DNA of 64,000 nucleotides from positions 1 through 64,000 of the forward strand of contig NZ_JNNO01000014.1 in assembly GCF_000735585.1 (NCBI RefSeq), in the 5' to 3' direction. Below the pieces are notes generated by a model. It was not told the DNA's origin and did no database searches. It saw nothing but the letters and a program-made list of their open reading frames with translations. This document shows positions 26,514 to 35,299 of the stretch, piece after piece (positions within the stretch are counted from its first letter, which is position 1; every line of letters starts with the position of its first letter). The stretch is from Devosia sp. LC5. GTDB taxonomy: Bacteria > Pseudomonadota > Alphaproteobacteria > Rhizobiales > Devosiaceae. A program made the position numbers and the translations under genes.

Positions 26514-27617
26514 ATGACCACGCTCAATATCTCAGGCCTCAAGAAGTCCTTCGGCACGACTGACGTTCTCAAGGACATCAACATCGCCGTGGGCGATCGG
26601 GGGTTCCTCGTGCTTCTCGGCCCTTCCGGCTGTGGCAAGTCCACGCTGCTGAATGTGATTGCCGGCCTGGAGCAGGTATCTGGCGGGGGCATCACCATGG
26701 ACGGCCAGGAAATCACCCGGGTCGAGTCCAAGGATCGGGACATCGCAATGGTTTTCCAATCCTACGCGCTCTATCCGAGCATGACCGTCGAGCGGAACAT
26801 TACCTTTTCTCTCGAGGTTCGGGGGGTACCACGCGAACAACGGCGGCAGGCAGCCGCCGAGGTCGCTGAGTCCCTGCAGATCGCCCACCTTCTCGGGAGA
26901 AAGCCTTCCCAGCTCAGCGGCGGGCAACGGCAACGTGTTGCCATCGGGCGCGCACTTGTCCGGAGCCCCAAGGTGTTCCTGTTTGACGAACCGTTGTCGA
27001 ATTTGGACACACAATTGCGCCTGGAAACGCGCGCACTGATCAAACGTCTTCATCAACGCCTTGGCAGCACGTCGGTTTATGTTACCCATGACCAGTCCGA
27101 GGCTATGACGCTGGCGACACATATCGCCGTAATGTCGAAGGGGGAGGTTGCCCAGTTCGGCACGCCCGCCGAGATCTATTCCAAACCGGCCAACCTGTTC
27201 GTCGCCCGCTTCGTGGGCACCCCACCCATGAATTTCTTTCCTGCCTCCGTAACCGAGCGACAAGGGCAGCTCCTAGTCCATCTGGAGAATTGCGGCGCAA
27301 TTCCGCCTATGGACCTTAGCTCGCACGGCGCACTTCTGCATTCGGTGGGGCGAAAGCTGACCATCGGCGTTCGCCCCGACCAACTGGTTCTCGCAGAATC
27401 CGCTGAGGATGGCGACCCGGTGCTTGAAGCGATCGTTGACATAGTCGAGGACACTGGCACGGACATGTTTGTGTACCTCCGCTCCGGCAATCAGGAATTC
27501 ATCCTTCGCCAGCCTCCAGGCCTCCCCCCGAAATCGGGCGCAACCCTCCGCGTCGCCCTGCCGGTCACCAACATGCATTTCTTTGATACCGAACTGGGTG
27601 ACCGGCTCAGCGACTAA
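26514..27617 (+). CDS. sugar ABC transporter ATPase (UgpC/MsmK family)
   Basis: The 367-residue protein has Walker A GPSGCGKST (about 38-46), MVFQSYALYPSMTV (Q-loop), LSGGQRQR (about 135-142), Walker B VFLFDEPLSNLD and the His switch THDQ. The C-terminal MalK-type regulatory region includes FVGTPPMNFFPA and TIGVRPDQL. ATPases of this group often serve several sugar importers. It is the fourth gene of the operon; a 70-bp gap separates it from the creatinase-fold gene. Confidence 0.92.
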   Translation: MTTLNISGLKKSFGTTDVLKDINIAVGDRGFLVLLGPSGCGKSTLLNVIAGLEQVSGGGITMDGQEITRVESKDRDIAMVFQSYALYPSMTVERNITFSLEVRGVPREQRRQAAAEVAESLQIAHLLGRKPSQLSGGQRQRVAIGRALVRSPKVFLFDEPLSNLDTQLRLETRALIKRLHQRLGSTSVYVTHDQSEAMTLATHIAVMSKGEVAQFGTPAEIYSKPANLFVARFVGTPPMNFFPASVTERQGQLLVHLENCGAIPPMDLSSHGALLHSVGRKLTIGVRPDQLVLAESAEDGDPVLEAIVDIVEDTGTDMFVYLRSGNQEFILRQPPGLPPKSGATLRVALPVTNMHFFDTELGDRLSD

Positions 27618-27687
27618 AGCCGGGCGCGGCGATCGCGCGCTCCACCTTGACCCCGCCGGCGCCCCGGCCAAACTTGCGAGACCACCT

Positions 27688-29049
27688 ATGAGCCATCTGC
27701 AAAGTGTTACCATACCCGACTTCGGCGCCCCGTTGATAAGGCCCGAAATTCCCGCTGAAACGCTCGTTGATCGCTGCGACCGGCTCTATGAAAAGGCCGG
27801 CCTAACTTGGGTCTTTGTCTATGCCGACCGGGAGCACAATGCCAATATCCTGTTTCTTACCGGCTTTGACCCCCGCTTTGAGGAGGCGGTGCTGCTGCTC
27901 GGCCCCCAAGGTCGCCGCATAGTCATCACGGGGAATGAATCGGAGAGTTTCACCGCAATTTCGCCGCTGCCTGGTCTGGAGGTAATGCTCAGCCAGTCAA
28001 TGAGCCTGATGGCCCAGGACCGGTCGAAGAAACCTAACTTGGAAGCGGTCCTACGGGATGCCGGCATCAAGGCGGGCGATACGCTAGGCATTGTCGGCTG
28101 GAAGTATCTGGAGGCAGCAGAATGGGACGAGGTAGCGCCCGGCTATCTGGTGCCTCACTATATGGTTGTCGTACTCGCCCGCATTCTCGGTGGAGCCGAA
28201 GGGCTGAGCGACGAGACCGCATTGCTCATGCATCCCGCCCATGGATTGCGCTCGGTCGTTGATGCTGACCAGATTGCTGCCTTTGAATGGGCATCGACCC
28301 GTGCTTCAGCGTCGGTCTGGAGTGTTCTGTCAAAGGCCCGGCCTGGCCAGCGGGAAATCGAAGCAGCCGCCAACTTCCTCTACGCCGGCGAGCCTTTGAG
28401 CGCCCATTCCATGTTCGCGTCCGGCGATGCTACGCATGCCATTCATGGACTTAATAGCGCCGGCGCACGCGTGCTCGCCAAAGGCGACGGGGTCACGACG
28501 GCCGTTGGCTACTGGGGCGGCCTGAGCTCTCGCGCCGGGCTGCTCGACGATGCGGACGATGTGTTCGTAGGGATAACCGCGAGCTATTTCGATAGCCTCG
28601 TCACCTGGTACGAGACGGCCAAAATCGGGACAACCGGTGGCGAACTGCACGAAGCCGTCGTCGAAAAGCTCGCCGCTTCGGGGCTAAAATCGGCGCTCAA
28701 TCCTGGACACCTCGTCAGCTACGATGAATGGAGCCATTCTCCGGTCCGTCCAGGTTCGATCGAGACTCTGGTTTCCGGCATGGTGTTTCAGGTAGACGTC
28801 ATCCCAACACCTATGGCTGCGGGTAAGGCGCTGAATTGCGAGGACGCAGTCGCCATCGCTGACGTGGCACTTCGTGCTGAGCTCGCCGTGCGCCACCCTC
28901 AGACCTGGTCTCGGATCGAGGCGCGGCGTGCGTTCCTAAGAGACACCATAGGGGTAGCTCTAGGCGATCACCTGCTGCCGCTATCCAACATCCAGTTGTG
29001 CCTGCCGCCATTGTGGCTCAAGAGCGACCATCTCATCGTCCGCAGCTGA
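27688..29049 (+). CDS. creatinase/prolidase-fold (M24-like) protein with degenerate active site
   Basis: The 453-residue protein has a prolidase-like N-terminal domain (YEKAGLTWVFVYADREHNANILFLTGFDPRFEEAVLLLG) and a C-terminal pita-bread-like half (RASASVWSVLSKARPGQREIEAAANF...GMVFQVDVIPTP). None of the usual M24 metal ligands can be placed: the expected His block reads LNPGHLVSYDEWSH and the Glu block reads VFQVDVIP. So it is either a metal-free hydrolase like creatinase or a binding protein. The ATG at 27688 is chosen because the upstream extension lies within the ATPase gene. It is the last gene of the operon, followed by a terminator. Confidence 0.75.
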   Translation: MSHLQSVTIPDFGAPLIRPEIPAETLVDRCDRLYEKAGLTWVFVYADREHNANILFLTGFDPRFEEAVLLLGPQGRRIVITGNESESFTAISPLPGLEVMLSQSMSLMAQDRSKKPNLEAVLRDAGIKAGDTLGIVGWKYLEAAEWDEVAPGYLVPHYMVVVLARILGGAEGLSDETALLMHPAHGLRSVVDADQIAAFEWASTRASASVWSVLSKARPGQREIEAAANFLYAGEPLSAHSMFASGDATHAIHGLNSAGARVLAKGDGVTTAVGYWGGLSSRAGLLDDADDVFVGITASYFDSLVTWYETAKIGTTGGELHEAVVEKLAASGLKSALNPGHLVSYDEWSHSPVRPGSIETLVSGMVFQVDVIPTPMAAGKALNCEDAVAIADVALRAELAVRHPQTWSRIEARRAFLRDTIGVALGDHLLPLSNIQLCLPPLWLKSDHLIVRS

Positions 29050-29066
29050 CCCGCGCGAAGATATCT

Positions 29067-29100
29067 GGGCCGCCCCCGTGTGGGCGGTCCATCCTCTTTT
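29067..29100 (+). terminator. rho-independent terminator of the sugar ABC/M24 operon
   Basis: A 9-bp GC-rich stem (gggccgccc / gggcggtcc, one G-T pair) with a short loop is followed by atcctctttt. It starts 18 nt after the last stop of the operon. Confidence 0.75.
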
Positions 29101-29716
29101 CGCGAGTGCGTCGAGGAAAGGAAAGACTCCTACTCGGCAAGGGATGCCCCAGCCAGAAAGGTGACCAAGCCTGATCTGGCGAAATTTGCTGATCCTTCGG
29201 GCCGCTCGGGCATGCACCGGCTATTCGACGGCAGGTTTTCGGGCCTTCACCAAAGGAACAGTATTGCTAGTGAGTTGGCGCCACTGGAGAGTGTGGCCCG
29301 CTGCGACATGGTCGTGCTGGCCGTACCCCGGCAGACACAATGCCGGCCATGGCCGGCTTGCGTGATATGGCTGCTCAAAATCTTCAGAATGCCCACGGCG
29401 CCGCATCCAAGCATGGCAAGCGGCTCGTCAGAGTCGGAATTGCCATGGGGTTTCGGGCGAGCAATATTCGCCCCGGCACATGAAGGACGTCACCATCTGC
29501 GTCTGCGCAACGGGCCAACGGCTTCCTGCCGAGCTTCTGGTGGGAGGCAATAGTTGACACAACCCTAACACGTTGCTGCCGCAGAGCTCGTAACGGCGTT
29601 GCGTGACTGATCGGCAGCTATCCGACGGTCGGCGCCAAAAAGCGGCCTGTCTGGAATCGGCCCCATTTCTGCCGTTCATAAAGGGCCTAGACGGTCAATA
29701 TCGATCATTCATCGTC
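29101..29716. other. gene-poor junction region
   Basis: About 600 bp lie here with only weak short open frames (for example one at 29080-29553 and one on the other strand at 29428-29679). Neither shows a family, a ribosome-binding site or coding-like composition. It separates a catabolic operon from the AAA-protease module and looks like decayed DNA. Confidence 0.5.
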
Positions 29717-29971
29717 CTATGCCTTCAACCTCTTCTTGTAATCCTCGTCACTTCGTCGGGGTGGTGGTGATGGTGATGGTGTATCTGTCCGGCTTCGAAC
29801 GGGTGCCGGTCCCAACGGCCCGCCCAAGGCGCAATAGCCCTCGACGACCGCTTCAGTTCGTTCGATCAGTCGGCGGTACTCGCCGGGGTGATCGACCAGC
29901 CAGCCGGCGGTCGACCGGTCGAAGGGAACCCCGGTTTCGTCGATAATGACGATCTCTAGCGTGCTGATCAT
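29717..29971 (-). CDS. small hypothetical protein, last gene of the AAA-protease module
   Basis: I do not recognise this 84-residue protein. The sequence begins with a strand-rich segment (STLEIVIIDETGVPFDRSTAGWLVDHPGEYRRLIERTEAVVEGYCALGG) followed by a Pro/Ser-rich, then basic tail (SDEDYKKRLKA). The ATG at 29971 has a Shine-Dalgarno ggggag 9 nt upstream. It lies on the same strand as, and downstream of, six other genes of the module. Confidence 0.5.
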   Translation of the reverse strand: MISTLEIVIIDETGVPFDRSTAGWLVDHPGEYRRLIERTEAVVEGYCALGGPLGPAPVRSRTDTPSPSPPPRRSDEDYKKRLKA

Positions 29972-30054
29972 GGTGATCAACTCCCCTTGATGTTGAAGAT
30001 CTCAAGCCAGCCACCGAGGTCGGCGGCTGGCACGGTCGGCAAGATCGAGGTGGC

Positions 30055-30180
30055 CTACCTCCGGTGCTGGAACACATCGCACAGGCCGATATTCGGGTCG
30101 TGCCGGTGCGTACTCTCGATCTCCTCGCCGCCGCGCAGAAAATGCGTTGAAGTGCGCACAATGATCACTGCCTGCTGCAT
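30055..30180 (-). CDS. very small protein (41 residues) in the AAA-protease module
   Basis: A short frame starts with an ATG that overlaps the stop of the DUF6634-type gene by 16 nt. It encodes MQQAVIIVRTSTHFLRGGEE followed by IESTHRHDPNIGLCDVFQHRR. The clear strand-turn pattern and tight overlap with its neighbour favour a real gene, but it is too short to classify. Confidence 0.4.
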   Translation of the reverse strand: MQQAVIIVRTSTHFLRGGEEIESTHRHDPNIGLCDVFQHRR

Positions 30181-30506
30181 TGCTGAACCTCCCCGAGCCT
30201 GGGGCCGAGTCGATAGTAGCGGCTGACGGTTCGCACCCACCCGGCCTGCTCGTCGGCAGCGAGGATTGCCGAGGTGGTGATGCAGCCGTCCTGCAGCAGG
30301 GGATGGCCGCTGGCGAACCCGACCAGGCGCACCAGCCCGCCGGGCATGGGCTGGACGGCCCAGCCGGTCAGGAGCGGCGCATTGGCCAGTTCTGCCGCGC
30401 CCGGCACAGCCCCCGCCCTGATGCGGGCCGCCTCGCGCAACCCGGCGGCGACGGTTTCCCTGGGCAAGATACTTATGAGGACCTCCGGCGCTTGTGGTCG
30501 GGGCAT
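30165..30506 (-). CDS. DUF6634-type small protein
   Basis: This 113-residue protein resembles the DUF6634 family of alphaproteobacterial plasmids and islands. The centre GWAVQPMPGGLVRLVGFASGHPLLQDGCITTSAILA and the following DEQAGWVRTVSRYYRLG (about residues 45-100) are the recognisable part; function unknown. The ATG at 30506 has GGAG 8 nt upstream; a TTG five codons earlier is possible. It overlaps the 3' end of the zinc-finger-like gene upstream by 34 nt, so the module is tightly packed. Confidence 0.65.
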   Translation of the reverse strand: MPRPQAPEVLISILPRETVAAGLREAARIRAGAVPGAAELANAPLLTGWAVQPMPGGLVRLVGFASGHPLLQDGCITTSAILAADEQAGWVRTVSRYYRLGPRLGEVQQCSRQ

Positions 30507-31078
30507 TGGGTGCTCCACCAACCGTTTTGGCTCTGTTGTGATCCGGGGGCGCCGCAGGCTTCGCAGACATGCCCGGACAGATGCTCGGCGGCAGAGATGA
30601 CTGCATCACCAAGTTCGGGCAGGTCGCCATGCCAGTAGAAGCGAAGGGTGCCGTATTTTTCCTTGATCTGGTCCGGCGCCCAATTCCGGTCAGGCGCGAT
30701 TTCGTCGAGCCAGGTGAAGGTGGCATCGAGCAGATCGGTCCAACCTGGCAGGCATTCAAACCCGACAGTGGCTCGCTTGTGCGTCCGGTGCAGCGCCTGC
30801 AGGTCCACCTCAATCGGTGGCATGGCCAGTGGTATGAGCGGGGTGGCCCGCTGCCAGCGCAAACGCTGCATGCGCACCACCAGTTCGATGATGGTCTCGC
30901 GGCGGAATGGCGGCTTGCGGTGATAGGTGCTGCCGCCAATGGTGCTGGCCGGAATGCCAGGGATGATATGCACGTTCAGCGTTGTGGGCGAGGCGCCGGT
31001 AACGGCCAGTGTTGTCAGTGCCGGATCGCCATCGAGCGCAGCTTCGATCAGGTTTTGGGTTTCAGTCGCGATGGTCAC
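30473..31078 (-). CDS. hypothetical protein with C-terminal CxxCG zinc-finger-like motif
   Basis: The 201-residue protein belongs to a family seen in phage and plasmid genomes. Its core reads VGFECLPGWTDLLDATFTWL, then QIKEKYGTLRFYWHGD, then AEHLSGHVCEACGAPG and CPDHKRRR, so a KEKxGTLRFY block is followed by Cys-x2-Cys and Cys-x2-His ligands. The function of the family is not known to me. The start is taken as the GTG at 31078, which has a gagg sequence 6 nt upstream and overlaps the previous gene by 17 nt; ATG 31099 is the alternative. Confidence 0.6.
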   Translation of the reverse strand: MTIATETQNLIEAALDGDPALTTLAVTGASPTTLNVHIIPGIPASTIGGSTYHRKPPFRRETIIELVVRMQRLRWQRATPLIPLAMPPIEVDLQALHRTHKRATVGFECLPGWTDLLDATFTWLDEIAPDRNWAPDQIKEKYGTLRFYWHGDLPELGDAVISAAEHLSGHVCEACGAPGSQQSQNGWWSTQCPDHKRRRSS

Positions 31079-31325
31079 GGTCGGCCTCGTGGAGAACATC
31101 ATCGATGGCGGCGAGTGCAATCTCGATCAATGCGGCTTCGATCAGCGCCAGCCAGGGGCGGCCCCGGCCAATGGCCAGGGCCGCGCGGATATTGGAGATG
31201 GTCGGGCGCTGGTCGCAGGCGATGAGCGCCTCGCATTCGGGACCCTGTGGCAGGGTGCGGATACACAGGGTGATCGCATAGTCCCAGGCATGGGCAGCGA
31301 TACGGATCTGATCGGCCTTTTCCAT
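31062..31325 (-). CDS. small helical protein following the AAA+ protease
   Basis: This 87-residue, helix-rich protein (MEKADQIRIAAHAWDYAITL, later IGRGRPWLALIEAALIEIALAAIDDVLHEADRDHRD) has no recognised domain. Its ATG overlaps the stop of the AAA+ protease gene as ATGA, so the two are translationally coupled, which suggests a direct partner, adaptor or inhibitor of the protease. Confidence 0.65.
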   Translation of the reverse strand: MEKADQIRIAAHAWDYAITLCIRTLPQGPECEALIACDQRPTISNIRAALAIGRGRPWLALIEAALIEIALAAIDDVLHEADRDHRD

Positions 31326-33283
31326 CAGATCCTCCCTGCCACCGGAATATGGTCTTCGATGGCGTCGTCGGTCTTGTCAGGCTTTTCGGCCGTGGGACCG
31401 GCCTCGAGGATTTCGGCCAGCCTGTCGCCGATGATGACGCGCTCGACCTGCAGGATCTCGACCAGCCGGAAGATATCGGCCCGGCGCCGGCTGACGATTC
31501 TGACCGCCCGGTCGTGGAGGCGATCGAGTTCGGCCGCGATTGCCGTCCACAACGAGCCGTTGTTCCAGTGGCGCGGATCGATGTTCTGGACCGTCGTCAG
31601 GGGGCCATAAAGTCCCAGGTCGAGCATGGCGCTGCGCAGCACGGTGTTGGCGATCTCGAGGTCGGACTCCGCCCCGCTATTGGCGCCATCGCCCAGGGTA
31701 ACGTCAGCGGCGCGGCCGGCCAGCACCATGGTCACCAGATTCTCGACATCGCCCCGGGTGAGCACCCCGTCCTTGAGCTTTGGCTTGACCCAACCGCCCA
31801 TGGTGCCAGCACCCAGGATAGAAACCTCGAGGATCGGCAGGTTCAGCGTATGCGCCACCACGGCATGACCAGCTTCATGGATGGCGATGCCGCGATCGGT
31901 CTCCGGCGACCGTCCATTGGACGGTGCGATCAGATTCATGAGGTCGGCCAGCTCGAGCGGCCGATCCTCGGTTTTGGTCCTGGCATTGGCCGACCGGCAC
32001 CAGCTCTCGATCTGCGCGGGCGTCGCTTCCACGGCCAGCCGCGCCAGTGCTGCGATACCGCCGGCGTCAATCCTGTCGCCGATATAGGCCGCGAACATGC
32101 GGCGGCGATCATCGAAATCCGGGAGCAGGACAGACACCTTGTGCTCCAACCGCCCGGGGCGGATGAGCGCCTTATCCAGCTTGTCAAAATGGTTGGTGGC
32201 GCCGATCAGCAGGATGGGCTTGCCAAGCTTGCGCAGCCGGTCGATCTCGGTCAGCAGGAAAGTCACCACCGGCGTCCACCAGGAGGCATCGTCAGCGTCC
32301 ATGCTCGCCCGGTCGGGGATGGCGTCGATCTCGTCCAGCAGCCCAACCACGGGGTCATTCGACAGGGCGATGTCATCGAAGAACTTGCGGGCCGCGCGGA
32401 TGACATCACCCAGATGGCCGCCGGAATCGGCGAACCAGCTCCCCACCGACGTCGAGACGAGACGGTAGCCGGCCGAACGGGCCAGTGCTGCGGCAATGGT
32501 CGTTTTGCCGGTGCCGGGTGGTCCTTCAAGGCAGGCGAAGCGCAGCGCGGACGCATCGACCTTGCCATCGGTCACATGGCGCATGAGCGCCAGCGTTTCG
32601 AAAGCCCAGTCGGATGCCGCCCGGGTCATGGCCAGCTGTTCAAGCGGGACGGGGGCATCGCCCTCGTCCTGCTTCTGGCGTGCATTGGCGATGCGGCGCA
32701 GATTGAAGATGCAGTCCCGCGAGGACAGGCCCGGCCGGATGGCGACGGTCAGGTCGTGAATCGAGAGCCCCTCGACGTCGATCGGCAGCAGACCGCGGAC
32801 AGGCCGGCCGGTGACCATGCGGATGGTTTTGCGGATAATGGCAAGGTCCGGGTCCGGCACCGTGATGATGGCATCGGCGCCCGCGAGAGCCTCGGGGACA
32901 AGCACGCGCTCGGGATCCTGCGAGATCAGGATGACGCTGCGGCCCTTTTCGAGCAGGTCGAGTTCGGTGCGGCCCTGCGGTTCGTACCGGCCGCCGATTT
33001 TCTGCCGTTCGGTATAGGCCGCGACCATCGTCGACCGGTCTTGGCCGGACAGATAGCGCTCAAGCATGCCGGCGGAACTCTCCTCGGCAGTCCGGATCAC
33101 GACAAGACGGGGCCGGGCCTTGAGCAGGCGCTTGAGCGCAGGCGTGAGGGCGGCCTCGAGCATGCACTGGGCAAGGGCGTCGCTGGTCCGCTCGGCCAGC
33201 GGGGGAGGCGCGTTGTCCTCGATATGGGGTTCGTCGTCAGTTTCGGTATCAGGGGATGGGCTACGCAGGGAAGCAATGGACAT
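31325..33283 (-). CDS. soluble FtsH-like AAA+ ATPase / M41 zinc protease
   Basis: This 652-residue protein has an AAA+ module with Walker A GPPGTGKT (about 254-261), Walker B VVGLLDEID (about 307-315) and a second-region-of-homology ATNHFDKLDKALIRPGRLEH with arginine fingers. A C-terminal M41 peptidase domain follows, with HEAGH (about 466-470) and the third zinc ligand Asp in GAESDLEIAN (about 536). Unlike FtsH it has no membrane helices: the N-terminal ~230 residues are a soluble domain (RLVVIRTAEESSAG..., GRSVILISQDPE, ADAIITVPDPD) that looks like a degenerate nucleotide-binding or ssDNA/protein-recognition fold. The ATG at 33283 has Shine-Dalgarno ggagagg. It is likely an ATP-driven protease with a dedicated substrate or adaptor encoded next door. 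Confidence 0.88.
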   Translation of the reverse strand: MSIASLRSPSPDTETDDEPHIEDNAPPPLAERTSDALAQCMLEAALTPALKRLLKARPRLVVIRTAEESSAGMLERYLSGQDRSTMVAAYTERQKIGGRYEPQGRTELDLLEKGRSVILISQDPERVLVPEALAGADAIITVPDPDLAIIRKTIRMVTGRPVRGLLPIDVEGLSIHDLTVAIRPGLSSRDCIFNLRRIANARQKQDEGDAPVPLEQLAMTRAASDWAFETLALMRHVTDGKVDASALRFACLEGPPGTGKTTIAAALARSAGYRLVSTSVGSWFADSGGHLGDVIRAARKFFDDIALSNDPVVGLLDEIDAIPDRASMDADDASWWTPVVTFLLTEIDRLRKLGKPILLIGATNHFDKLDKALIRPGRLEHKVSVLLPDFDDRRRMFAAYIGDRIDAGGIAALARLAVEATPAQIESWCRSANARTKTEDRPLELADLMNLIAPSNGRSPETDRGIAIHEAGHAVVAHTLNLPILEVSILGAGTMGGWVKPKLKDGVLTRGDVENLVTMVLAGRAADVTLGDGANSGAESDLEIANTVLRSAMLDLGLYGPLTTVQNIDPRHWNNGSLWTAIAAELDRLHDRAVRIVSRRRADIFRLVEILQVERVIIGDRLAEILEAGPTAEKPDKTDDAIEDHIPVAGRI

Positions 33284-33363
33284 GTGACCTCTCCAGGCGG
33301 CGGCCAGGGGCCGCGCCACGTGTGAGATGAAGGAAGGGGATGAGGCGCGAGAAACAGACCGCG

Positions 33364-34578
33364 TTAGCGCGCCGGTGCGCTAAGGCCGGTATCGATCGGC
33401 TGCCAGCCGCCGCGGCCCTGGCCCTTGCTGCCCACGGTAAAATGCATGGCGGCAGAGGCCGAGGAAAAGACCATGTCGCGGCTCAGCACGTAAGAGGTCC
33501 CGTCATGGGCCAGCTCAAGAATGCCGGCATTATGCCAGGCGGCCCGCAAATAGCTCACCGAGGCATTGGCGCTGGCGACGCAATCAAGGCGGATGTCGGA
33601 GCCGCGCAACAAGACCCATTCGTCATCGGCGCGGCGGCAGGCCAGGGCCATGTGATCCTTGCCGAAAGACAGTTCCATCACCTCGCCTTCAGGAGCCTCA
33701 TCGAAGGCGCGCAGGGGCGCCAGGCGACCCGCTTCCGCGCGCGGACCGGCCAGCACCAAGCGCGGGCTGAGATTGACGAAAAGGTATCCTTCGCGTGCGA
33801 GGGCATGACAGGCCATGGCCGCGAAGAGGTTGAGCTCTTCATAGCGTTCCGGCGAAACCGCTGCACCATCCGGCGTGCCATTGACCAAGGCCACTTCCCG
33901 TGCTGCCGCGACGCGGCCATGGATGATGCGCTCGAGCACCAGGGCATCGGCCTCGCTCAACCCGTCATGGATATCGGTGATGGTGATAATCGCATCGACA
34001 TCGGCGATCGGCTGCGCGCCATTGGCCACACGGCGGCCCACTTCCGATCCCATGCCGACATAGGCCTGCGCACCGGACAGCAGGATATAGACACCGGGGC
34101 GGCGCAAGGACCCGGCACGACCCAATGCACGACGCGCGCTGCCCGAACTAACCAGGACGTTCGGCTGCAGGCTGGTGACAGAAAGGGCCACAATACCGTC
34201 TGGAAGGCCGCCCGGCGCTGGCAGGATACCACCTGGAGCAGCAGGCGTCGGGTCATCATCGGGATCGGTCAGCACCGTACGGGTAAGCATTGTGTGCTGG
34301 TCAAGCACGCCCGAGCGGAGATCGGCCTTGACGATCCCCGCAGAGATGAGCACCTGGATGGCACCGGCCGGATCAACATGGCCGTCCAGCGCGGCCATCA
34401 CGTCGCCGACACTGGCCGAGCCGGTCTCCTCGATCAGGCTCAGGATCATCACCTGATCGGTGGGGCTGACCAGGTCGTGCTGCACCAGTCCCGACGCGAT
34501 CGCGATCGGGCTGGTCGTGGCGGAAAGAAAATGGGGCTTGTTCGACGCCGCAGCGCCGCTAGAAGAAGGATAGGTCAT
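33364..34578 (-). CDS. GIY-YIG nuclease-domain protein with C-terminal DUF4357
   Basis: The 404-residue protein has a GIY-YIG-type core at about residues 160-220: GVYILLSG...AYVGMG, arginine in EVGRRVA, and the metal-binding Glu in LVLERIIHGRV. Residues about 310-395 match DUF4357, with LLRGSDIRL, LAHDGTSYVLSRDMVFSSASAAMHFTVG and a closing GRGGWQ. An N-terminal domain of about 80 residues (VSPTDQVMILSLIEETGSASVGDVMAALDG) looks like a winged helix. GIY-YIG-DUF4357 proteins occur in mobile-element and defence contexts. The first gene of the leftward module; the ATG at 34578 has Shine-Dalgarno agagg. The protease gene follows after 80 nt. Confidence 0.82.
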   Translation of the reverse strand: MTYPSSSGAAASNKPHFLSATTSPIAIASGLVQHDLVSPTDQVMILSLIEETGSASVGDVMAALDGHVDPAGAIQVLISAGIVKADLRSGVLDQHTMLTRTVLTDPDDDPTPAAPGGILPAPGGLPDGIVALSVTSLQPNVLVSSGSARRALGRAGSLRRPGVYILLSGAQAYVGMGSEVGRRVANGAQPIADVDAIITITDIHDGLSEADALVLERIIHGRVAAAREVALVNGTPDGAAVSPERYEELNLFAAMACHALAREGYLFVNLSPRLVLAGPRAEAGRLAPLRAFDEAPEGEVMELSFGKDHMALACRRADDEWVLLRGSDIRLDCVASANASVSYLRAAWHNAGILELAHDGTSYVLSRDMVFSSASAAMHFTVGSKGQGRGGWQPIDTGLSAPAR

Positions 34579-35045
34579 GTATGCCTCTGCTCGTACAGGG
34601 GTTATGTGGCTTAGGCTGACGACGGGTTTGCACACCTGTCGTCGGCCGCCCTTGCACAGGCGGCCCGCCGGCCAGTCAAGCCGGGAATCGACCTGACGCA
34701 ACCAAGATGCGGATTCCTCAGTCCGAAGACAAGGATCCGGGCCGACGTCCTCGATCGCATGGTTAATGGCTGATGGAACTGCTCGGCGTCGGACCGACGC
34801 GTGGAAGCAAAGTTGCCTCATCGGCATAAGATATTGCTGTTGATTGCCACTGAGAAGTGATGGAGTGGATGCCGTCGGGAGGGGGCATCCACTCCATCAA
34901 TTCTCGGCGAAAATCAACAATGTGGGCCCTTACTCGGCCTTTCGACCCCAATCCGCGTGCGAGTAGCGGAGCATCGCGTGTCGTCGGCGTGTCACAGTTA
35001 TAAGTAAAATGGTGGGGACGTTCGGTCCGTTTCAACCTTGAACTC
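34579..35045. other. gene-free region with a long hairpin, upstream of the AAA-protease module
   Basis: No credible coding frame is present; the frames at 34763-35047 (minus) and elsewhere lack support. The region holds the 82-nt hairpin described separately and ends at a palindrome. It would form the leader or promoter region of the leftward module. Confidence 0.55.
34838..34919. repeat. 82-nt long imperfect hairpin
   Basis: Three stacked stems are in register: tgttgatt (34838-34845) with aatcaaca (34912-34919); gagaa (34852-34856) with ttctc (34901-34905); and a 16-bp perfect stem 34858-34873 with 34884-34899, closed by a 10-nt loop. One G/A mismatch and one 6-nt partly paired internal loop interrupt it. 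This is far longer than a terminator and suggests a structured RNA, a MITE-like element or a cruciform-forming site. Confidence 0.9.
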
Positions 35046-35075
35046 AAGCCTGCACTAGTGCAGGCTTTTCTTTAT
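35046..35075. terminator. 22-bp perfect palindrome with T tract
   Basis: 35046-35067 is a perfect palindrome (stem aagcctgca, loop ctag) followed on the plus strand by tttctttatt, a classical terminator for rightward transcription. No rightward gene precedes it, which raises the possibility of a rightward non-coding transcript through the hairpin at 34838-34919. It also lies 5 nt past the stop of the leftward 75-residue gene and may serve both directions. Confidence 0.65.
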
Positions 35076-35299
35076 TTGTCGGCTGAAGATCGCTCGGCGA
35101 TGGCGAAGTCCTGCAGTGGTCTACTCGAGTCGAGGTCTTCTTCGGCGCGCTCGATCATCTGAGCGAAAGCCGCCCGGATGATTTGCTTTTTGGATGCCCT
35201 GGGGTAAAGCTTTCGGACCTCTTTCATAATCGCTTTGTGGGAGCCTCGCTCTTTTGCGAGCTTGGCCAGGGTCGCCTCCAAGGTTTCTTGTTTTGACAT
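35072..35299 (-). CDS. small basic helical protein
   Basis: This 75-residue protein is mostly helical and basic in its first 50 residues (LAKLAKERGSHKAIMKEVRKLYPRASKKQIIRAAFAQMIERAEED), a composition compatible with DNA binding or an antitoxin-like role. I do not recognise a family. The ATG at 35299 has a ggaag Shine-Dalgarno 6 nt upstream, and the gene ends at a terminator-like palindrome, so it is likely real and separately transcribed. Confidence 0.6.
   Translation of the reverse strand: MSKQETLEATLAKLAKERGSHKAIMKEVRKLYPRASKKQIIRAAFAQMIERAEEDLDSSRPLQDFAIAERSSADK

What the first reader, a model, noticed from the sequence alone, without database searches (positions are those of the whole stretch)
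29717..34578. Candidate undescribed module: soluble FtsH-like protease with a GIY-YIG/DUF4357 protein and five small proteins
Seen in the sequence: seven minus-strand genes, several with overlaps, join a GIY-YIG/DUF4357 protein, an AAA+ protease with a complete M41 zinc site but no membrane helices, a small protein coupled to it by an ATGA overlap, a CxxCG zinc-finger-like protein, a DUF6634-type protein and two very small proteins. Established: FtsH is normally membrane-anchored, and GIY-YIG domains occur in mobile and defence loci. Inference: the protease may process or release the nuclease-like protein, or the module may be a maintenance or defence system. Gene-poor DNA on both sides suggests it moves as a unit.
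Basis: partly seen in the sequence, partly recalled or inferred. Interest (0 to 1): 0.8.

Follow-up and report, generated by a model that had tools for sequence, protein, structure and literature searches.

The report
Transposon-linked nuclease–protease gene cassette
A bacterial genome carries a small set of genes, found as the same block in unrelated places in related bacteria, that pairs a probable DNA-cutting protein sharing a part with a jumping-gene enzyme with a soluble protein-degrading machine that is predicted to control it; our literature searches found no description of this pairing.

Summary
The genes are there, and the two main ones are not a chance neighbourhood. The core is a nuclease-like protein (404 aa) directly upstream of a soluble FtsH-type AAA+/M41 protease (652 aa). 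In 75 genomes of the genus, 33 of 38 nuclease genes sit just upstream of the protease on the same strand; the other five lie at contig ends (3) or are broken (2). The two proteins diverge in step (r 0.85, 28 pairs). GIY-YIG and zinc-protease sites are conserved. Main new result: the nuclease's N-terminal winged helix matches the C-terminal winged helix of TnsA from Tn7-like transposons by profile comparison. In the sister branch, 20 of 46 protease rows have tnsA, tnsB or tnsC downstream on the same strand, often with a TnsA-like protein without catalytic residues in front. Other copies form a 4.7-kb nuclease-protease-tyrosine-recombinase block shared by two genomes with unrelated flanks. The small genes are variable accessories; two of five have little or no support. 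Best reading: an undescribed mobile nuclease-protease cassette related to transposon machinery, in which the protease probably limits or times the nuclease. Function is untested; phage defence is the main rival.

The parts
34750..34766 (-). Conserved upstream DNA element TTAACCATGCGATCGAG, about 170 bp before the nuclease start; the block shared with relatives begins at it or within some tens of bases
   Evidence: Exact upstream of the protease in 8 fetched loci and the window of 81 examined, none of them outside nuclease-linked loci; in 41 genomes 5 exact matches, all at such cassettes, and 3 one-mismatch matches elsewhere; block ends
33364..34578 (-). 404-aa protein: TnsA-type winged helix (residues 26-102), GIY-YIG nuclease domain, C-terminal DUF4357-like part
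   Evidence: Y164, Y173, G175, R183, E216 invariant in 33 sequences; model and fold matches; wHTH match to c9 and TnsA; PADLOC PDC-S14 9e-22
31325..33283 (-). 652-aa soluble AAA+/M41 zinc protease with a non-FtsH N-terminal domain (about residues 27-205)
31062..31325 (-). 87-aa small protein, one-base overlap with the protease gene
   Evidence: Homologues in 4 of 5 closest loci; no family match
30473..31078 (-). 201-aa protein with C-terminal CxxCG...CxxH zinc-finger-like motif, GTG start
   Evidence: Homologues in all 5 closest loci; translation; no family match
30165..30521 (-). DUF6634 protein
   Evidence: Pfam PF20339 1.4e-16, above its cut-off; near 27 of 84 protease genes
30055..30180 (-). 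41-aa ORF, probably not part of the module
   Evidence: No homologue in the 40 loci or the 15; outside the shared block
29717..29980 (-). 87-aa ORF, doubtful accessory
   Evidence: One weak homologue, L027, E 0.008; 65.6% DNA match with L027 at 29714-29851

Best explanation
The window carries a nuclease-protease cassette that recurs as one block in unrelated places: a protein with a winged helix that matches that of the Tn7-type transposon subunit TnsA and a likely active GIY-YIG nuclease domain is encoded directly upstream of a soluble FtsH-type AAA+ zinc protease that is predicted to control it. Shown: the linkage, the co-divergence, the conserved active sites, the winged-helix match, the transposon genes beside sister proteases, and the shared blocks with unrelated flanks. 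Inferred: the winged helix places the nuclease on DNA and is the part that the AAA+ protein recognises; after or between cutting events the protease unfolds or degrades the nuclease (or the complex it sits in), so that DNA cleavage is short-lived. This would serve the life cycle of a mobile element, much as ClpX takes apart MuA complexes (recalled). In the window's own branch no recombination gene was seen nearby, so the cassette either is moved in trans or has been kept for another use. DUF6634, the 87-aa and the CxxCG proteins would be adaptors or regulators.
For: 33 of 38 nuclease genes in 75 genomes lie immediately upstream, same strand, of the protease; the 5 exceptions are 3 at contig ends and 2 broken copies. 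13 of 15 named loci likewise, the 2 others at contig ends. Nuclease label needs 7 changes on the protease tree, shuffled mean 26.3, 0 of 500 as low. Distances correlate, r 0.85, 0 of 2000 permutations as high. hhalign: nuclease wHTH against TnsA-like c9 97.4%, E 1e-11; against TnsA 95.2%, E 2.6e-8; against 38 other gene families of the same loci at most 2.5%. 58 of 58 tns genes within 8 kb downstream are on the protease's strand; 0 of 20 housekeeping ftsH loci have tns, recombinase, GIY or DUF6634 matches. c9 is upstream, same strand, in 10 of 10 genes at 8 loci. FtsH-rooted tree: the GIY clade (31 of 38 rows) joins a 15-row group with 12 transposon-type rows, support 93. Nuclease-protease-recombinase block 4.7 kb, 91.6% identical, unrelated flanks.
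Against: No recombinase or tns gene was recognised within 7.5 kb of the window's protease. A winged-helix match is not specific by itself: ArsR and MarR families in the same run match at 92.5%, E 5e-7, and a plain HMM of the nuclease and c9 winged helices does not find most TnsA proteins. 7 tns genes lie upstream of a protease, 6 on the other strand, and many sister proteases have no recognised partner. The deepest split of the rooted tree is weak (74). No direct repeats were found at the block ends of three copies at the lengths tested (10 bases or more, 12 for L215; single inverted matches of 10-12 bases at non-matching places), and no empty site for one copy in 75 genomes. In one pair of Tn7-type loci the protease gene alone is the shared block, so it may be a passenger there. 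No interaction was tested.
Confidence: 0.45

Rival explanations
1. An anti-phage or anti-plasmid defence pair: the nuclease cuts incoming DNA and the AAA+ protease senses infection and releases or degrades a restraint.
For: The nuclease matches PADLOC candidate PDC-S14, E 9e-22, as do the ORFs upstream of two diverged sister proteases (L118, L124). One copy (L026) lies directly beside MzaC, MzaD and MzaE, and L130 near a GajB-like helicase. A scan of 140 neighbouring ORFs matched 100 PADLOC families, among them methyltransferase, restriction and Mads models. Patchy presence, 28 of 75 genomes. The GIY-YIG protein SNIPE is a phage-defence nuclease whose soluble form is toxic (PMC13190303, passages seen).
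Against: Of 40 neighbouring ORFs scanned one by one, 34 have no match at E 1e-8; the other 6 are three Mza proteins, one helicase and two PDC-S14 partners. No control scan was run. The protease's relatives keep company with transposition genes.
Confidence: 0.3
2. An addiction or maintenance unit: the nuclease is toxic and the protease keeps it low, so cells that lose the cassette are harmed.
For: In the genus, intact nuclease genes were seen without the protease only at contig ends; ParA-type genes are near 8 of 84 protease genes, in L026 with a weak ribbon-helix-helix match.
Against: No toxicity data; one order-level nuclease relative (G135) has no protease match beside it.
Confidence: 0.15
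3. A chance neighbourhood of unrelated accessory genes.
For: Small genes vary between copies.
Against: Linkage and co-divergence of the two core genes.
Confidence: 0.02

Closest known systems
FtsH (M41 AAA+ protease)
   Same: AAA+ domain and zinc protease, fold match over residues 206-630
   Different: No membrane anchor seen, different N-terminal domain, far below the FtsH equivalog cut-off (113.5 against 600 bits)
Tn7-like transposons (TnsA, TnsB, TnsC, TniQ)
   Same: The nuclease carries a winged helix that matches TnsA's; sister proteases sit beside tnsABC
   Different: GIY-YIG instead of TnsA's nuclease fold; no tns gene recognised within 7.5 kb in the window
Tsy, tyrosine-recombinase transposon with a GIY-YIG nuclease (PMC10293859, passages and outline seen)
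   Same: Some copies here join a GIY-YIG protein and a tyrosine recombinase; in Tsy the nuclease helps but is not essential
   Different: Tsy has two recombinase-type proteins and an HTH protein; the term FtsH does not occur in the paper's main text, and protease only in reagents in the passages shown. Here an M41 protease stands between, and the window lacks the recombinase
PDC-S14 (PADLOC defence candidate)
   Same: Profile match over residues 124-394 of the nuclease
   Different: PDC-S14 is filed as a single-gene candidate (recalled from its name); here the gene is tied to a protease
SNIPE (GIY-YIG phage-defence nuclease, PMC13190303, passages seen)
   Same: GIY-YIG nuclease domain with a DNA-binding part
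   Different: SNIPE has DUF4041 and a membrane anchor; no protease partner in the passages seen

Membership tests
FtsH equivalog (TIGR01241) | Score above curated cut-off | tested here: not met
   113.5 bits against 600
FtsH equivalog (TIGR01241) | N-terminal membrane helices | tested here: not met
   Hydropathy maximum 1.50 against 2.26-2.29 in four FtsH; a hydropathy scan, not a dedicated predictor
Peptidase family M41 | HExxH and third zinc ligand, AAA+ domain | tested here: met
   Pfam M41 43.7 bits against 29.9; conserved motifs
GIY-YIG nuclease superfamily | GIY and YIG tyrosines, helix Arg, metal-binding Glu | tested here: met
   Y164, Y173, R183, E216 invariant in 33 rows (the roles of the residues are recalled); UvrC GIY-YIG domain among weak fold matches, best E 0.28
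DUF4357 (PF14267) | Score above gathering | tested here: not met
   22.6 against 38.4 bits for the window protein; many homologues carry the precomputed label
Tn7-like transposon | tnsA-tnsB-tnsC next to the genes | tested here: not met
   None recognised within 7.5 kb of the window's protease; tns genes are downstream of 21 of 84 protease genes
TnsA | PD-(D/E)XK catalytic E, D, K | tested here: not met
   Only the winged helix matches; GIY catalytic part against TnsA 0.1%
Tsy transposon | Tyrosine recombinases with HTH and GIY-YIG | tested here: not met
   No recombinase recognised within 7.5 kb in the window
IetAS defence | IetA AAA protein with a separate subtilisin IetS | tested here: not met
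   IetA hit (2.8e-21) is the AAA domain only; no such protease among the 8 ORFs scanned
PDC-S14 defence candidate | Profile match and defence activity | tested here: inconclusive
   Profile E 9e-22; activity not testable here

The most novel reading that the evidence does not exclude
A transposon-derived class of mobile nuclease-protease system: the TnsA-type winged helix is a reusable handle by which an AAA+ machine grips a DNA-cutting enzyme. In Tn7 relatives the AAA+ partner is a regulator; here it is a protease that destroys or extracts the nuclease, so proteolysis times DNA cutting. The nuclease domain was swapped from the TnsA type to GIY-YIG and the pair left the transposon to spread as its own cassette.
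Probability: 0.3. Interest if true: 0.85.

Novelty: new variant of a known kind. Interest (0 to 1): 0.68.

Why it matters
Proteolysis is a known way to end transposition (recalled), but a dedicated, element-borne zinc AAA+ protease tied to a nuclease did not turn up in ten searches of the open-licence paper library. The pair allows a direct test of whether a domain shared with TnsA is what an AAA+ partner recognises, and it gives DUF6634, the soluble M41 branch and PDC-S14-type proteins a function to test.

Tried and rejected
N-terminal protease domain as a degenerate AAA domain: the register looks right by eye and two Rix7 chains align from residue 32-34, at 16 A rmsd, but profile comparison with its own AAA domain gives 0.2%; left open. 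The same domain, and the 87-aa and CxxCG proteins, against the other families of these loci: nothing.

Empty site of the window's cassette: G331 shares the right flank up to 34941 and has no nuclease or protease match, but its other side does not match the window's left flank; in 8 genomes the listed matches of the left flank (26514-29717) cover only its ABC-ATPase part. Empty site of the 4.7-kb block: none in 75 genomes, its own included. Motif as a transposon end: its core TTAACCA recurs upstream of most of 15 nuclease genes aligned, so it may be a promoter element instead (TTAACCAT as a CtrA half-site is recalled, not tested).

Defence neighbourhood: 140 neighbouring ORFs scanned (of 141 selected; one of 2140 aa was left out), 100 PADLOC families matched, only the first 25 listed, so proteins could not be counted; 40 neighbours, 37 of them from that set, were scanned one by one. 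A control set beside ftsH was listed but not run, because those loci are orthologous copies. Phages: matches of at most 30% identity, none over 80% of the query; viral contigs with the nuclease: none. Rfam: none. PDB with the nuclease profile: none; with c9: three weak chains.

Tree labels: L040, L116 and L130 were set to GIY by hand. L127 and L147, labelled GIY on the transposon side, are short ORFs and uncertain. L118 and L124, unlabelled in the tree, proved to have PDC-S14-type ORFs upstream; the tree was not recounted. Two of ten c9 members (truncated or diverged) were left out of alignment A5.
Full report
What is in the sequence. Five minus-strand genes between about 30165 and 34578 have homologues in the same order: a 404-aa nuclease-like protein, a 652-aa AAA+/M41 protease, an 87-aa protein, a 201-aa CxxCG protein and a DUF6634 protein. 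The protease overlaps the 87-aa gene by one base (TGATG), not four. ORFs 30055-30180 and 29717-29980 have no or one weak homologue and lie outside the block that the closest relatives share.

The nuclease. Y164, Y173, G175, R183 and E216, the places of the GIY-YIG active site, are invariant in 33 sequences down to 26% identity. The model shows a winged helix (26-105), a GIY-YIG-like domain and a C-terminal part; the fold matches are weak (none with E under 0.001), so the GIY-YIG assignment rests mainly on the motif. PADLOC calls it a PDC-S14 relative, E 9e-22.

Linkage. Genus-wide, 46 match rows make 38 nuclease genes in 28 of 75 genomes; 33 are immediately upstream of a protease on the same strand. 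The five others: three at contig ends (G003, G005, G035), one fragment (G016), one copy with stops (G644). In 297 genomes of the order, of 14 nuclease places with E up to 4e-17, 12 are adjacent to a protease, one is at a contig end and one (G135) has none; of 7 weaker ones none is adjacent, and five of them match only the C-terminal part. In named genomes 13 of 15 loci are adjacent, the other two at contig ends; 13 are Devosia, one Pelagibacterium, one an unplaced alphaproteobacterial bin. The protease is wider than the nuclease: 93 match rows in 45 of 75 genomes.

Phylogeny. On a tree of 84 protease genes the nuclease label needs 7 changes, shuffled mean 26.3, 0 of 500 as low; one starred side of 38 rows holds 31 of the 33 nuclease-linked rows, and the other side of 46 rows holds 20 tns-linked ones. 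Two unlabelled rows of the 38-row side, L118 and L124, later proved to have PDC-S14-type ORFs upstream. With four FtsH as outgroup the soluble proteases are one group (100), the nuclease clade has support 99 and joins a 15-row group in which 12 are transposon-type (93); the deepest split is weak (74). Pairwise distances of nuclease and protease correlate at 0.85 in 28 pairs, none of 2000 permutations as high.

Transposon link. Among the 84 genes, 21 have tnsA, tnsB or tnsC within 8 kb downstream, and all 58 such genes are on the protease's strand; 7 tns genes lie upstream, 6 of them on the other strand. Identity of the genes: TnsA-like N domain above cut-off in L133 and L136, TniQ in L054, TniB in L063 and an rve integrase core just under its cut-off there; the TnsA profile finds the PseTnsAB fusion at E 1.4e-7 and a chain named Integrase at 1.9e-11, Tn7 TnsA itself only at 0.23. 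Twelve TnsA members keep invariant E148, E153, Q172, D192 and K236. A further family, called c9 here, matches TnsA along its length (97.5%, E 5.9e-12) but shows no conserved acidic or lysine set in eight members. It lies upstream of the protease on the same strand in 10 of 10 genes at 8 loci. A search with the nuclease and c9 winged helix, looked at for the 44 protease rows without a labelled nuclease or c9, adds similar ORFs in seven loci (L053, L063, L064, L133, L136, L144, L149) and finds the known nuclease of L040; most of the rest have no such hit, TnsA-bearing loci included. Twenty housekeeping ftsH loci have none of these neighbours. The window's own genome holds such a transposon-type locus as well (L065).

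The bridge. The winged helix of the nuclease matches the C-terminal winged helix of c9 (97.4%, E 1e-11) and of TnsA (95.2%, E 2.6e-8). Against 38 other families of the same loci it gives at most 2.5%, c9 at most 7.2% and TnsA at most 3.3%. A caution: two ordinary winged-helix families, taken by eye as ArsR and MarR (four rows each), match each other at 92.5%, E 5e-7, so a high score between winged helices need not mean close kinship; the same place upstream of the protease, c9 as an intermediate and the low scores to ArsR and MarR speak for it. That TnsA's C-terminal domain contacts the AAA+ protein TnsC is recalled, not tested.

Movement. Window against L026, L027 and L028: one 4.6-kb block at about 82% identity, flanks unrelated. 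L036 and L045, two copies in one genome: 3.7 kb at 91%; L058 and L059: 2.7 kb at 95% with protease and DUF6634 alone. L214 and L215: 4.7 kb at 91.6% with nuclease, protease and tyrosine recombinase, ending inside the recombinase stop codon. L055 and L128: the protease alone, 2.5 kb at 90%, ending at tnsA. How the blocks move is not known.

What it probably does. Shown: linkage, conserved sites, the winged-helix match and shared blocks with unrelated flanks. Inferred: that the nuclease cuts DNA of the element or its target, that the protease recognises the nuclease through the winged helix, and that it ends cutting by extraction or degradation. Defence is the strongest rival (PDC-S14 profile, Mza genes beside L026, the SNIPE precedent); an addiction unit is possible. 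Literature: passages of PMC10293859 (Tsy), PMC13190303 (SNIPE) and PMC4619093 (DUF4357) were seen, the outline of PMC10293859, and a term search of PMC8649781 (Tn7 cargo) that found no FtsH, M41, protease or GIY-YIG in its main text.

Noticed in passing
L065 (G000:C23:67000-82000), same genome as the window: A second soluble M41 gene with a TnsA-like c9 protein and DUF6634 upstream and tnsA-tnsB-tnsC downstream.
   Followed up: partly
L026:10433-15952: MzaE, MzaD and MzaC defence genes directly upstream of a close copy of the window's module.
   Followed up: partly
L214:5665-10373 and L215:5666-10369: A 4.7-kb nuclease-protease-tyrosine-recombinase block that looks like a small mobile element of its own.
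   Followed up: partly
L118:1138-2160 and L124:3363-4319: Diverged PDC-S14-type ORFs upstream of soluble M41 genes, missed by the BLAST clustering.
   Followed up: no
window 34767-34941: About 175 bp between the TTAACC element and the point where genome G331 becomes collinear; it holds a 16-base inverted repeat (TGATGGAGTGGATGCC / GGCATCCACTCCATCA).
   Followed up: no
window 35072-35299: 75-aa ORF kept in genome G331's flank, with a weak PADLOC PDC-S32 match (E 0.002).
   Followed up: no
plasmid collection: Distant FtsH-like matches (about 29% identity) on large Pseudomonas plasmids: 106 of 181 matching records.
   Followed up: no
L034: Two diverged nuclease-protease pairs stand head to head, one with DUF6634 and ParA, the other with a tyrosine recombinase.
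   Followed up: partly
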